Below, in pieces: positions 22,962-46,517 of a stretch of 64,000 bases of DNA. Under the pieces are notes generated by a model, which was not told the origin of the DNA, ran no database searches, and was given only the letters and a program-made list of their open reading frames with translations. Each line of letters opens with the position of its first letter. Within the stretch, counting starts at the first letter, position 1. Source of the DNA: Cristatella mucedo (lineage: Eukaryota; Bryozoa; Phylactolaemata; Cristatellidae); contig WPIO01000002.1 of the NCBI GenBank assembly GCA_009760855.2, positions 498,001 to 562,000 of the forward strand, read 5' to 3'. Both the position numbers and the translations under genes were made by a program.

Positions 22962-23038
22962 GTGGACCGGATCTACTATATTAATTCAGAGAGTCTAATA
23001 TATGATCCACTCAACGGATGCCAAGTGACCAATCTCAC
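22962..23038 (+). CDS. Constant exon 5: SEA domain centre, last constant exon
   Basis: A 77-nt exon between ACTGTAATGCAG-type acceptor sequence and a consensus donor (CTCAC|GTGAGT). It begins in phase 0, matching exon 4, and ends in phase 2. It encodes VDRIYYINSESL followed by a Cys and ends VTNL-T. In SEA domains this central segment leads directly to the Gly-Ser self-cleavage site. No Gly-Ser follows before the donor, so the cleavage motif must come from the next exon. Three downstream acceptors fit it: 33098, 38519 and 40584, all beginning with a single G that completes a Thr codon and followed by x-Gly-Ser. This makes it the branching exon of the proposed alternative splicing. Confidence 0.75.
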
Positions 23039-23139
23039 GTGAGTTTCTTCTTGTACTTCACACCATGCTGCTAACCTTTCTCAGCTAGGAAGGATGAGCT
23101 ACATTGTTTACACAGTAGCAGCAGCCGTTTTAAGTATTA

Positions 23140-23440
23140 ATAATAATAATAATAATAATGCATTTGTATAGTGCCCTCAGAGAACTGACACACACTCTCT
23201 CTCTCTCTCTCTCTGTCTCTGTCTCTCTCTCTCTCTCTCTCTCTCTCTCTCTCTCTCTCTCTCTCTCTCTCTCTCTCTCTCTCTCTCTCTCACTAGGCAC
23301 TTTACAGATGAAAGCATTACAAATGATTGATGGTAGCATCCGAAAGCAGCAGGCACAGTGTAAGCAGATATATGCACAGGAAGGGCGAATCACATAGACT
23401 CACAAAATGCTGTAATAAACCGGTGTTTTACTGTGGTATT
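23140..23440 (-). mobile_element. LINE-A tail split by a CT microsatellite
   Basis: The left part is the tail (AATAATGCATTTGTATAGTG, CCCTCAGAGAACT) and the right part continues (TAGGCACTTTACAGATG). The normal TCTCTTTC segment between them has become a CT array of about 97 nt. Confidence 0.72.
23194..23290 (+). repeat. CT microsatellite inside LINE-A tail
   Basis: CT array with two GT interruptions, in the loop region of the LINE tail stem-loop. Confidence 0.92.
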
Positions 23441-23499
23441 AAGTATTTTATTACGGTCTTCGGTCTTGCGAAAGTATGCCGTAATTCATTGAAAGGGAT

Positions 23500-24720
23500 T
23501 GTTTCGGTTGACTAGCCGTTTCGCTGGCGTGATTTTAAGCACCTGGTCCTTAGCTGCTGTTAGCCATCTTCGTCTTGGTGGATCGTTGGTCGATTGGTAC
23601 TACTGCTACAAACCTTGGACAGTTGGCTGCGTTATGGATCGCCAGCAGCTCGGAGAAAATAGTGGGACATGTGACTGCTCGTTCTGTCCACACAGCTGGT
23701 GGTGTCTTTAATCCAGAACCTTTGCCCGGGACTTGCAGAGCACTACTGCTTGCATTTCGGCACACCTTGCTTCGGCTGTGGCTGCTGCTTTCGCATGCCA
23801 GCCCACACATGCCAGCCCGAGAGGACAGCTGTATTGCTGTCTCCGGCCACTGCTGCCACCTTTGCTGATCCACTGCTTGGGTGCTACTGGGCTCGTGCTT
23901 CGGCGGCGCTGTGCACCTTGTCACCGAAGCTGTGCACGGTGGCTTCGAGCCCACCAGCTGCCTGTAGGATGTCGTCGACACCGTCTCGAGAACGTCTCGT
24001 CTTGCTCATGGTGAGTTGAAGCAGCACTGCTGCTGCTGCTGCTGCTGCTGCTGCTGCTGCTGCTGCTGCTGCTGCTGCTGCTGCTGCTGCTGCTGCTGCT
24101 GCTGCTGCTGCTGCTGCTGCTGCTGCTGCTGCGGTTGCGGTTGCGGTTGCTGGTGGCTACTGCAGGCAGGCAGGGGCTGCCTGTGTGGGCCCCATGCAGA
24201 CCAGCTTGTCTCTCTCTCTCTCCTGAGCTGAAAGCAATGGTCACGTGGCGGGATAGTGTCATTGTGGTGTGCATTTGTCATAACGTTCACAGCCTGGCTG
24301 GCTGGCATCACAGTTTTGCACGTCACGGTGAGGTCAGGATCAGGCTGCCTGCCATGCTCAGATGGACGTTTATGCTGGCATGCTTTTGCCTCGACTTTAA
24401 GCTACTCGGAGTGCTTGCAAGCTTGTGGAGCTTGCAGTGTAAACCAGAGTTGATGAAGCGCTTGTTGATTGCAATGGTTTCGGTGCTGAGCCGAGCCCAG
24501 CCGCGCGCAGCCTGGTTTCGGGCTAGGAGAGCTGGCGATCGACTGCTGCCTGCCAGGCTGTCACTTAAAGCAAGCCTCTTTAGCTCCTTGCAGGACTATG
24601 CAGCTTGCATGTTCATCCCATCATTGCGAGTAAACTTCACCCGACGACTGTATGTCTGTTTTGATGCAGTAGCTTGTCCAATCCCGGAGTGCAGCAGACA
24701 CGAGTGAATTAAAGAGCACG
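23500..24720. other. GC-rich block, coding status unknown
   Basis: Open frames of 100-190 residues exist on both strands but in conflicting frames, and none shows a domain I know. It lies in the long intron between constant exon 5 and cassette 1. GC-rich DNA lowers stop-codon frequency, so the frames alone are weak evidence. Confidence 0.3.
24027..24132 (+). repeat. CTG/CAG trinucleotide array, about 35 units
   Basis: Essentially uninterrupted CTG array followed by GGTTGC repeated three times. On the minus strand it can be read as poly-Gln or poly-Ser depending on frame. Confidence 0.95.
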
Positions 24721-44079: not shown

Positions 44080-44190
44080 GTAAAGCAACATTGTACACAG
44101 CAGCACCGGCGCGCCATGGTTGCAGCTCCTTGTCTGTCACACGGCTGCCGCCCTCGCCGCTGGCAGCTCCGCTCCTTAAAAAATAAGGTA

Positions 44191-44343
44191 GCTGATTTAA
44201 CAGCCCCATTTGTATAGATGCAAAAGAACCTTAACGGCTGTCACCATCCCTTGCAGTTGCAAATAAACGATTGCCCACTGCAGGATTCGAACCCTTGACC
44301 TCGGGAAAGCGAGCACCTCACCTTCTCGGCTACTACGGCCCAT
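44191..44343 (-). mobile_element. SINE-B copy in cassette 3 intron
   Basis: GCTGATTTAACAGCCCCATT end and GCAGGATTCGAACCCTTGAC as box B in reverse. It begins about 110 nt after the donor of exon 3b and truncates the run-on frame there. Confidence 0.72.
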
Positions 44344-44943
44344 ACCCCTGCCCTCTCTGAAGCGATGCCTTCCTCCGTCGTCGTAATCATGCTCGGGCAG
44401 CGTGCGCTGCAGCTCTCGGCAGAACGAGGCTGCTTGGCGGGTGGCTGCACGCGTTGCATCGATGCCATCGATTGCCATCGATGGCTGTGTGGGTCACAGG
44501 TGAGCGCTTCGCGGCGTCGGCGCTAAGCATGCCAGGGACATGCGTGACAGGGAACAGCCAGTGGAGAAAAGGCTCGCGTCTCTTTAGCAAAGCTTGTAGA
44601 AAAGCTGTCACTCTCTTCCCTTCGCTTGAACGTTACGTGCACATTCACGCTCGTCTGCATGAATGCTATTTTTGCCCAATAGTTGATTTTGTCACAACTC
44701 AAAATTTCCTTCGATTCCGGCCCGAAGCCACTCTTACCACTGCCGAGTAGAAGCCGTTCCTTCCTTCACAGACTACGTAGTATGTCCTAGCAAGCTCTGA
44801 ACGAAAATGTGCCTCCATTTCGTATCGGTCAAGTCCATAGGCTTGCTGCCGGCGACAGATTTCAATGAGCCTACCATAGACTTCAGTGAGCCTACACTTT
44901 GAGGGGTCAGTGATGATCCCGGCTTTTCCTTCTGCTTCTGCAG

Positions 44944-46517
44944 ATGACACCACCTCGCCGGTGCCTGCCTTCGGCATTTCACCTTCGCCGGTGTCCCTGC
45001 CTACCACCGGAAGTCGCCAGATCACGAAGACAACTGCCACCACTGCCGCCACCACTCGCATCACCACCGCCGGCGGCAGCTCTACCGGTGCCGTGCAACG
45101 GTCTCCCTGCTACATCCCTGGCAGCGCAACCGTCGTGCGGCTCGTTGCCGACCCTTTGAACTGTCGCGCTTTCTATGTGTGCGGCTACGGCTCCAGCGTT
45201 CTCGTCCACATGAACTGCACGTCCAACTCGTCCTATTCGTACTATAATGCGACGAGCAAAAGGTGCGAGCTCTGCGACGTGGCTAAGTGCAGTCAGTGCG
45301 CCGGCCTGCGGCCCTGGCCCAAGATCACTCTGCCCGTGCTCATGCGGACTGTGGCCGCCTCCTTAGCAGCCGCGCCGACCATCGCCGGTACGCCCGGCGG
45401 CGCCGCCAGTGTGAGCGCTGGCGGCGGTGGCAGCGGGCGGCCCGCTGCTGCAAACGCTGCCGTGGCCTCGCTTGCAGACGCTTTCGCTGCAACCAGCAAC
45501 CGAGCGCAGCAGCAGCAGCATGCTGCACCGCTGCCCTCCATAGCAGCCGAAATGCTGGCCGCTCTGCCGCCCGGTGTCCACCCGTTCTCAGCCACCTCGA
45601 CCGGCAGATCAGCTGACGACGAGGGTGCGAGCCAGTGCGACTCAGCAGCTGCCGCATCTGCCGGTGGCGCGCTACCCAAGACCGTAGCACCTTGCTCGAC
45701 CGAAACAGTGGCAGCAGCAGCAGCGCAGCAAGGTCGACCAGGCGTGATGGCAGCAGCAGCAGCAGCAGTAGCGGACGCATCTCTCCGCTTTGGCACTGCT
45801 CGAGTCGCGCCTGCTCTCAGATCTGAGCGTGATGCCACGAGGCTCACGGCTGCAGAGCGGTTGGCCACTCGCAAAATGGCCCTGTGTCGTGCCATAGCTT
45901 CGATTGGCCCCATCGAAACTGTTGAAGTTGCACAGCTAACATTGTCGACATCGACTCCTCAGCCTGCAGCTGGCTCGGGGAGCATTCTGGCCACGGCCAC
46001 GTCTTTTCGTACTGGTGCGGCCGCACTCGGCTCGCCTGCTGCTGCCGCGTTTGGAGACTCGCGCATCGTCACTCCTGAGCCTGAGTGCCGGCAGGCGGAT
46101 GCTGCTCTCCTGCTGCCACAGACCGTGAAGGCCGTGCAGTCGCAGGCTGCGAGGCTGCGCAGCTACGAGCTTTCTGGTGCCGCCACCGCCTGGTCGGGCG
46201 ACGGCGGCGCGAGCAGGCAGCCTGAGTCCGCACTGCGCCTCTGCGCTGCCGCCGCTGTCGACGTTCGCCGGAGCCTGCTGGGCGTCGTCGTCGTCGCAGA
46301 CCCGGCCGACTGCACTCGCTTTGCGTACTGCCTCAAGAGCGGAGTGGCCATGCTGTGGCAGTGCAAGTGCGGCCAGATGTACGTCGCCGGCCTGCAGGCT
46401 TGCAGCGCCTGCGACAGGGCTGAGTGCGCCAGCTGCAAGCCGTGCGCCACCGCCGGCTTCCCTGCCCGCGGCGTTTCCCTGACGCCTCGGCAGCGAGCAA
46501 GGGAGGACAGGCAGTAG
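44944..46517 (+). CDS. Alternative cassette 3, exon c: two CBM14-like Cys-rich domains, terminal
   Basis: The acceptor (CTTCTGCTTCTGCAG) starts the exon in phase 1, completing an Asp codon with exon 3b, and it ends with TAG. The product has a Thr-rich stalk, then a Cys module at about 45105-45300 (CYIPGSATVVRLVADPLNCRAFYVC ..., shown in part: DPLNCRAFYVCGYG, then YYNATSKRCELC). About 310 residues of Ala/Ser-rich spacer follow. A second module at about 46240-46435 has the same layout (DPADCTRFAYCLKSG, then GLQACSACDRAEC). 'DPxxCxxFxxC' is a hallmark of CBM14/peritrophin-A. Total visible protein with exons 1-5, 3a and 3b is 1311 residues. The Ala-rich spacer contains GCA/CAG-rich runs. Confidence 0.82.

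What the first reader, a model, noticed from the sequence alone, without database searches (positions are those of the whole stretch)
22962..46517. One membrane-anchored half-SEA socket with three alternative terminal chitin-binding-like heads
Seen in the sequence: one SEA N-half ends at donor 23038 in phase 2. Three downstream acceptors (33098, 38519, 40584) all begin with a single G that completes Thr, then x-Gly-Ser and a hydrophobic strand (SGSIVFSF, RGSVIVHF, HGSIKVNF). Each joined frame is open to its own stop (858, 1058 and 1311 visible residues). Inference: alternative last exons give one receptor or cuticle/mucus-linked protein three different ectodomains. I know of no described gene arranged this way.
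Basis: partly seen in the sequence, partly recalled or inferred. Interest (0 to 1): 0.92.

Follow-up and report, generated by a model that had tools for sequence, protein, structure and literature searches.

The report
One anchor half, three swappable ectodomains
A gene of an unidentified, probably animal, species appears to make one membrane anchor carrying half of a self-cutting SEA domain, and to choose one of three alternative last exons for the other half plus the outer part of the protein, so that splicing would swap the part that can be shed while the anchor stays the same.

Summary
Exon D (22962-23038) ends at donor 23038 in phase 2. The only three sites in 234 kb, both strands, with AG|G-NNN-Gly-Ser-[V/I]-x-[V/I/F]-x-Phe lie downstream, same strand and phase (33098, 38519, 40584). 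I found a further SEA exon, C (acceptor 18514 or 18518, donor 18670). C+D alone score 12.3 bits with Pfam SEA; joined to the cassettes 21.0, 29.4 and 24.7. Of 35 decoy joins, 11 had no SEA hit, 23 scored 11.7-17.2 and one scored 24.6. So the three together stand out, but only cassette 2 beats every decoy and passes the cut-off of 26.4.

No second SEA N-half was found nearby or, among the candidates scored, elsewhere in the genome. The junction lies 7 nt before the Gly|Ser bond at which SEA domains cut themselves, so the variable part would be almost exactly the detachable fragment.

Weak points: no RNA evidence; no homologue in three protein searches; the splice link from transmembrane exon B to exon C is out of phase as modelled; only cassette 3 has a recognised chitin-binding domain. 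A plausible, unproven new variant of a known kind.

The parts
4581..5667 (+). Exon A: long open exon, predicted cytoplasmic part (true N-terminus not found)
   Evidence: Acceptor score 4.6, donor 4.4; 362 open codons, 0 of 2000 shuffles open; joined frame A->B open
6128..6613 (+). Exon B: basic cluster then transmembrane segment AAITCAVLAAVVVVVTVVA (19-residue hydropathy 2.83), predicted type II anchor
   Evidence: donor 4.6. No homologue
18518..18670 (+). Exon C: first part of SEA N-half (beta1-alpha1), ...VYYILAITFIGALRLMMDFLPEMRDINSTVSRNLSRLFCSA; acceptor 18514 or 18518
   Evidence: Found by exon scan, acceptors; part of the Pfam SEA match. Donor weak (0.8); phase does not match exon B
22962..23038 (+). 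Exon D: second part of SEA N-half (alpha2-beta2), VDRIYYINSESLIYDPLNGCQVTNLT; donor 23038 phase 2
   Evidence: ranks first among 41 phase-2 donor candidates 18.7-40.6 kb (hand-made score, partly circular)
33098..33854 (+). Cassette 1: SEA C-half SGSIVFSF..., Ser/Thr-rich linker, Cys-rich head (16 Cys in cassette), stop
   Evidence: SEA 21.0 bits when joined to C+D, below the best decoy (24.6)
38519..39875 (+). Cassette 2: SEA C-half RGSVIVHF..., long Ser/Thr/Pro-rich linker, Cys-rich head (19 Cys), stop
   Evidence: SEA 29.4 bits when joined, above Pfam cut-off and all 35 decoys
40003..40008 (+). ATTAAA between cassette 2 stop and cassette 3 acceptor (possible poly(A) signal; weak evidence)
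   Evidence: such hexamers occur 0.67 per kb on this strand
40584..40714 (+). Cassette 3, first exon: SEA C-half HGSIKVNF...
   Evidence: SEA 24.7 bits joined, 24.2 with next exon, about equal to the best decoy
43669..44079 (+). Cassette 3, second exon: end of SEA region and Ser/Thr-rich linker (acceptor weak, score -2.0)
44944..46517 (+). Cassette 3, last exon: linker, CBM_14 matches, stop
   Evidence: CBM_14 E 1.4e-6, 28.8 bits over cut-off 22.1, 2 stretches at E<=5; acceptor 10.9

Best explanation
One gene, probably of an animal, makes a type II membrane protein. Its constant 5' exons encode a cytoplasmic part, one transmembrane helix and the N-terminal half of a SEA domain, up to the loop in which SEA domains cut themselves. 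Donor 23038 then joins one of three alternative terminal cassettes (33098, 38519, 40584). Each supplies the C-terminal half of the SEA domain, starting 7 nt before the Gly|Ser bond, a Ser/Thr-rich linker and its own Cys-rich head, and ends in its own stop. The chain would fold, cut itself at Gly|Ser, and leave an anchored fragment (constant but for its last residues) holding one of three non-covalently bound, potentially shed ectodomains. Shown by sequence: phases, open frames, motif, and joined SEA scores that as a set exceed decoys. Inferred: the splicing choice, the anchor link, the autocleavage and any chitin/mucus binding.
For: Three and only three matching acceptors in 234 kb on both strands, all downstream, same strand and phase; 0 in 40 shuffles. 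SEA score rises from 12.3 (N-half alone) to 21.0/29.4/24.7 with the cassettes, while 1 of 35 decoy joins reached 21 or more. No other N-half found in the introns, and no close copy of C or D among the candidates scored in the whole genome. Long intact frames. 708 bp separate cassette 2's stop from cassette 3's acceptor, little room for a separate anchor plus SEA N-half (inference). All three cassettes start at the SEA beta2-beta3 loop with G-S-[VI]; SEA domains are cut in that loop, at GSVVV or GSIVA where autoproteolytic (PMC6954182, passages), and matriptase, a type II protein, at Gly149-Ser150, its halves staying together (PMC5567652, passages).
Against: No transcript evidence. Exon B ends in phase 1, but exon C's good acceptors need phase 2 or 0, so an exon is missing or the anchor is another one. 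Exon C's donor (0.8) and acceptors 43669 (-2.0) and 40584 (2.8) are weak or moderate. Only one of three joined domains passes Pfam's cut-off, the match stops at position 76-77 of 106, and a decoy at 61808 without Gly-Ser scored 24.6, above cassette 1 and level with cassette 3. No homologues.
Confidence: 0.65

Rival explanations
1. Two or three tandem genes of one family: cassette 1 belongs to exons A-D, while cassettes 2 and 3 belong to neighbouring genes whose own SEA N-half exons are too divergent to see.
For: Cassettes share no significant DNA similarity, so they are old or unrelated; tandem duplication is common; tblastn and my tail score would miss a very divergent exon. Open frames of 80-137 aa exist in the 4.66-kb gap before cassette 2 and of 82-94 aa in the gap before cassette 3.
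Against: Only 4.66 kb (cassette 2) and 0.71 kb (cassette 3) lie upstream after the preceding stop, with no open frame of 150 aa or more in them that is not the cassette itself and no good SEA-like phase-2 tail. Only one C and one D exon among the whole-genome candidates scored.
Confidence: 0.19
2. Only one cassette is the working end of the gene; the others are rarely used, failing or decaying duplicates of the terminal exon.
For: Acceptor strengths differ widely (8.2, 11.5, 2.8); no expression data.
Against: All three frames are intact over 252, 452 and about 705 codons and keep the Gly-Ser-[VI]-x-[VIF]-x-Phe core; decaying copies would be expected to gain stops.
Confidence: 0.12
3. The SEA N-half and cassettes do form one gene, but it is not anchored by exon B: a secreted or otherwise anchored protein starts between 6.6 and 18.5 kb. 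(This overlaps with the best explanation except for the anchor.)
For: B->C phase mismatch; 11.9 kb gap; no homologue of exon B.
Against: Exon B's transmembrane helix precedes the SEA exons in the order seen in matriptase, and exons A and B are long open exons on the same strand; a small linking exon such as 17073-17131 would repair the phase (unproven).
Confidence: 0.2

Closest known systems
Matriptase (type II transmembrane serine protease with SEA domain; PMC5567652, passages read)
   Same: Type II anchor, SEA next to the membrane, Gly|Ser cut in the middle of SEA, N-fragment holds the ectodomain non-covalently
   Different: One ectodomain with CUB domains and a protease; no alternative C-halves in the passages I read; here the heads are mucin-like and Cys-rich, with no protease among the Pfam matches
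Cell-surface mucins with SEA (MUC1, MUC16)
   Same: MUC1 SEA is autoproteolysed in the same loop; Ser/Thr-rich regions, possible shedding
   Different: Topology reversed (mucins have the C-terminal half anchored; recalled); no switch of SEA halves known to me
AbetaH-J-J (ASPH/junctin/junctate/humbug) locus (PMC2625362, abstract and passages)
   Same: One locus gives several functionally distinct proteins by alternative splicing (paper); that they share the anchor and differ in C-terminal luminal domains is recalled
   Different: No SEA domain and not switched inside a self-cleaving domain (recalled); two promoters (paper)
Peritrophin-A / CBM_14 proteins
   Same: Cassette 3 carries CBM_14
   Different: Cassettes 1 and 2 have Cys-rich heads but no CBM_14 match; most peritrophins are secreted (recalled)

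Membership tests
SEA domain (PF01390) | Pfam score over the curated cut-off of 26.4 bits | tested here: inconclusive
   Joined C+D+cassette: 21.0, 29.4, 24.7 bits; 1 of 3 over the cut-off. 35 decoys: 11 no hit, 23 at 11.7-17.2, one at 24.6
SEA domain (PF01390) | Gly-Ser followed by a Val/Ile-type strand in the beta2-beta3 loop (GSVVV or GSIVA in PMC6954182) | tested here: met
   GSIVF, GSVIV, GSIKV at the expected place. None is letter-identical to GSVVV or GSIVA. Cleavage itself not tested
SEA domain (PF01390) | Complete fold through beta4 | tested here: inconclusive
   Match ends at profile position 76-77 of 106 in all three; joined proteins were not folded (tool rule)
Type II membrane protein | Single internal TM helix with basic residues on the N-terminal side, joined to the ectodomain in one transcript | tested here: inconclusive
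   Helix present, basic cluster before it; phase link B->C not resolved; N-terminus and any signal peptide not found
CBM_14 / peritrophin-A (cassette 3) | Pfam CBM_14 over cut-off 22.1 in the head | tested here: met
   28.8 bits
CBM_14 / peritrophin-A (cassettes 1 and 2) | Pfam CBM_14 match | tested here: not met
   0 families for both heads at E<=10; profile of the four heads finds no solved CBM_14 chain
Alternative-last-exon gene | One donor used with two or more terminal exons in transcripts | not testable with these tools
   No RNA data; the sequence allows it
Alternative-last-exon gene | Each terminal exon has its own stop and poly(A) site | tested here: inconclusive
   Stops met for all three; the first AATAAA/ATTAAA lies 715, 128 and 683 nt after the stops, at a background of 0.67 per kb, so only the second is mildly notable

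The most novel reading that the evidence does not exclude
A gene whose alternative splicing is aligned with self-proteolysis: the switch point lies in the SEA cleavage loop, 7 nt before the bond that is cut, so one constant anchored half-domain acts as a socket that must fold with three diverged partner half-domains, each carrying a different sheddable ectodomain. That would be a splice-selected, self-cleaved plug-and-socket display system.
Probability: 0.53. Interest if true: 0.82.

Novelty: new variant of a known kind. Interest (0 to 1): 0.61.

Why it matters
If real, it is a natural test of how far one half of a self-cleaving domain can accept diverged partner halves, and a simple way for a cell to change what it displays or sheds while keeping the same membrane and cytoplasmic part. 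It would also show an exon boundary acting as a subunit boundary after self-cleavage. It gives a concrete prediction for RNA-seq: three junctions from one donor.

Tried and rejected
Whole-genome Pfam SEA search: 0 matches here and 0 in the 14 control genomes, probably because SEA is split by introns (inference); uninformative. Protein database searches with exon B, model 1 (residues 480-852 of 852) and model 3 (residues 12-420 of a 792-residue ectodomain piece): nothing at E<=10, <=1 and <=1. Whole-genome searches with D+cassette 1 and with C+D+part of cassette 2: this locus plus four and three weak hits (E 0.25-8.2 and 1.4-3.2). I inspected the frames of L006, L007, L027, L028 and L029, and L008 and L009 by pattern only, and take the hits as chance. 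PDB sequence searches: no SEA relative, no CBM_14 relative. AlphaFold of the heads of cassettes 1 and 2: mean pLDDT 34.6 and 37.3, not used further. Search for Dscam-like docking/selector repeats among 1-kb (one 0.7-kb) flanks: only 10-14-base matches. Exon C start 18504, used, has no AG and is withdrawn. The score was hand-made with the SEA consensus (recalled) in mind, so exon D ranking first is partly circular; 41 candidates scored, 25 printed.

Decoys: 35 of the 59 acceptors, picked by hand. Left out are the 3 cassettes themselves and 21 others, most of them lying inside the cassettes or being alternative starts of listed frames. The first 5 gave at most 12.8 bits. That decoy has no Gly-Ser and stops after 60 residues; I cannot exclude that it is more than chance. 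Species not identified.

Literature: search listings only, (0 papers for 'SEA domain' + 'alternative last exon'; 10 of 10 listed; 10 of 230; 12 of 72; 8 of 18; 15 of 65; 4 of 4; 3 of 3; 6 of 50). No listed title or abstract start describes such a gene. Passages seen of PMC6954182, PMC2625362, PMC1552070 and PMC5567652. The library is open-access only, so 'not in print' is not shown.
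Full report
The window is 64 kb of a 15.8-Mb contig (C222:498001-562000) of a 572-Mb genome in 688 contigs. GC is 46.9%. Introns, repeats and SEA/CBM_14 domains point to an animal (inference). The species was not identified.

Observation. Donor 23038 and acceptors 33098, 38519 and 40584 are as described. After joining, each acceptor's first G completes ACG (Thr). The sequences continue SGSIVFSF, RGSVIVHF and HGSIKVNF, and each runs open to its own stop. I wrote a strict pattern for this start (AG, G, any codon, Gly, Ser, Val/Ile, any, Val/Ile/Phe, any, Phe). 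It finds exactly these three places on both strands of the 64 kb and none in 40 first-order Markov shuffles of the + strand. It finds the same three and no others in 234 kb of contiguous contig, C222:418001-652000. The pattern was written after seeing the sites, so the shuffle figure is a guide and not a test planned beforehand. A looser pattern adds one site, inside exon A, without a pyrimidine tract.

What it is. Exon D carries only the end of the SEA N-half. An exon scan of about 6.65-22.96 kb found exon C. Its likely acceptor is 18514 or 18518 and its donor 18670. It reads VYYILAITFIGALRLMMDFLPEMRDINSTVSRNLSRLFCSA and supplies the first strand and helix (assignment by comparison with the SEA order, recalled). 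C+D alone scores 12.3 bits with Pfam SEA. Adding cassette 1, 2 or 3 gives 21.0, 29.4 and 24.7 bits (24.2 with cassette 3's second exon). The cassettes alone give no hit.

Control. I joined the same N-half to 35 other in-phase open acceptors, out of the 59: 11 gave no SEA hit, 23 gave 11.7-17.2 bits and one (61808) gave 24.6. So three of three cassettes reach 21 bits or more against 1 of 35 decoys. Cassette 2 beats every decoy and is the only one over Pfam's cut-off. Cassette 3 is level with the best decoy and cassette 1 is below it. In all three cassettes the match ends at profile position 76-77 of 106. The Pfam scores therefore support the set; the Gly-Ser motif, phase and long frames carry the case for cassettes 1 and 3 singly.

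Is there a second N-half? tblastn of the pieces over the window and 30 kb of flank and a scan of 41 phase-2 donor tails from 18.7 to 40.6 kb (hand-made score) show only exon D as convincing. A whole-genome protein search finds exons C and D and cassette 2 here, plus three weak hits (E 1.4-3.2) that I take as chance. A search with D+cassette 1 finds this locus plus four weak hits (E 0.25-8.2). That tool scores only its best candidates. Between cassette 2's stop and cassette 3's acceptor lie 708 bp, and 4.66 kb before cassette 2. No open frame of 150 aa or more lies in them apart from the cassettes' own; frames of 80-137 aa do.

Heads and linkers. Ser/Thr/Pro make up 27% and 30% of cassettes 1 and 2 and 16-32% of the three exons of cassette 3. 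Cassette 3's last exon has CBM_14 (28.8 bits, E 1.4e-6; two stretches at E<=5). The heads of cassettes 1 and 2 are Cys-rich but match no Pfam family. A profile of the four heads finds no chitin-binding structure, and AlphaFold models were unusable. 'Chitin-binding-like' is therefore shown for one of three.

Anchor. Exon B has one strong hydrophobic helix after a basic cluster, and exons A and B join in an open frame. B ends in phase 1, while exon C's good acceptors need phase 2 or 0. Weaker acceptors in the right phase exist (18480, 18492), and a small linking exon (for example 17073-17131) could repair this; neither is proven. So 'membrane-anchored' is likely, not shown.

Mechanism. SEA domains are cut in the loop between strands 2 and 3, with GSVVV or GSIVA as the autoproteolytic motif (PMC6954182, passages). 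In matriptase, a type II protein, the cut at Gly149-Ser150 leaves an anchored N-fragment that holds the ectodomain non-covalently; shedding there needs a further cut outside the SEA domain (PMC5567652, passages). Here the splice junction lies 7 nt before the equivalent Gly|Ser bond (one base of Thr, one codon, Gly). Alternative last exons would therefore exchange the fragment beyond the cut plus the last two residues of the anchored one. Cassettes 1 and 2 carry their own stops within the exon, so choice would be exclusive unless an internal donor is used. No docking repeats were found, and none are needed for terminal exons. Poly(A)-like hexamers follow the stops at 715, 128 and 683 nt against a background of 0.67 per kb, which is weak evidence.

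Rivals. Tandem genes with unseen N-halves, one working cassette with two failing ones, and a different anchor are all possible. The first is weakened by the short gaps and the searches, the second by the long intact frames. The third is left open.

Known kinds. Alternative last exons are well known (recalled). A locus that makes distinct proteins by alternative splicing is AbetaH-J-J (PMC2625362, abstract and passages; that its products share a type II anchor is recalled). No paper in my listings describes a SEA domain split by alternative last exons (several listings capped; open-access library only). I rate it a new variant of a known kind. RNA reads would decide.

Noticed in passing
window about 51326-51520 (+): A stretch used as a decoy turned out to encode a Nop10-like protein (Pfam Nop10p, 74.6 bits, E 6.6e-21): a neighbouring gene downstream of cassette 3, on the same strand.
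   Followed up: no
window 61808-61987 (+): Open in-phase acceptor whose 60-residue frame, joined to the SEA N-half, scores 24.6 bits with Pfam SEA although it has no Gly-Ser; chance or a degenerate relative.
   Followed up: partly
window 2046-2173 and 2388-2515: Inverted repeat with 128-nt arms, 98% complementary, 214 nt apart.
   Followed up: no
window 35945-36102: Exact tandem duplication of 79 nt between cassettes 1 and 2.
   Followed up: no
window 25028-25945 (-), 57625-58281 (-), 580-1125 (+): Fragments of LINE-type reverse transcriptase reading frames (YADDTQLYL... and related; family label recalled), also in L001 and L002.
   Followed up: no
window near 1380, 35260 and 44280: Repeated stretches like 'GGATTCGAACCCACGACC' that resemble a tRNA B box, possibly a tRNA-derived SINE (label recalled); ARAGORN finds no tRNA in the window.
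   Followed up: no
window 40228-40583: The frame of cassette 3's first exon stays open for 356 nt upstream of its acceptor; I saw no SEA N-half in it.
   Followed up: partly
window 17073-17131: Possible small exon (phase 1 to 0, GTPNIQSHLYQPPAGLFSVT) that would repair the B-to-C phase.
   Followed up: partly
L027 from 1369: Single 475-residue open frame that looks like a rhodopsin-type GPCR rich in alanine (recalled resemblance), met as a chance hit.
   Followed up: no
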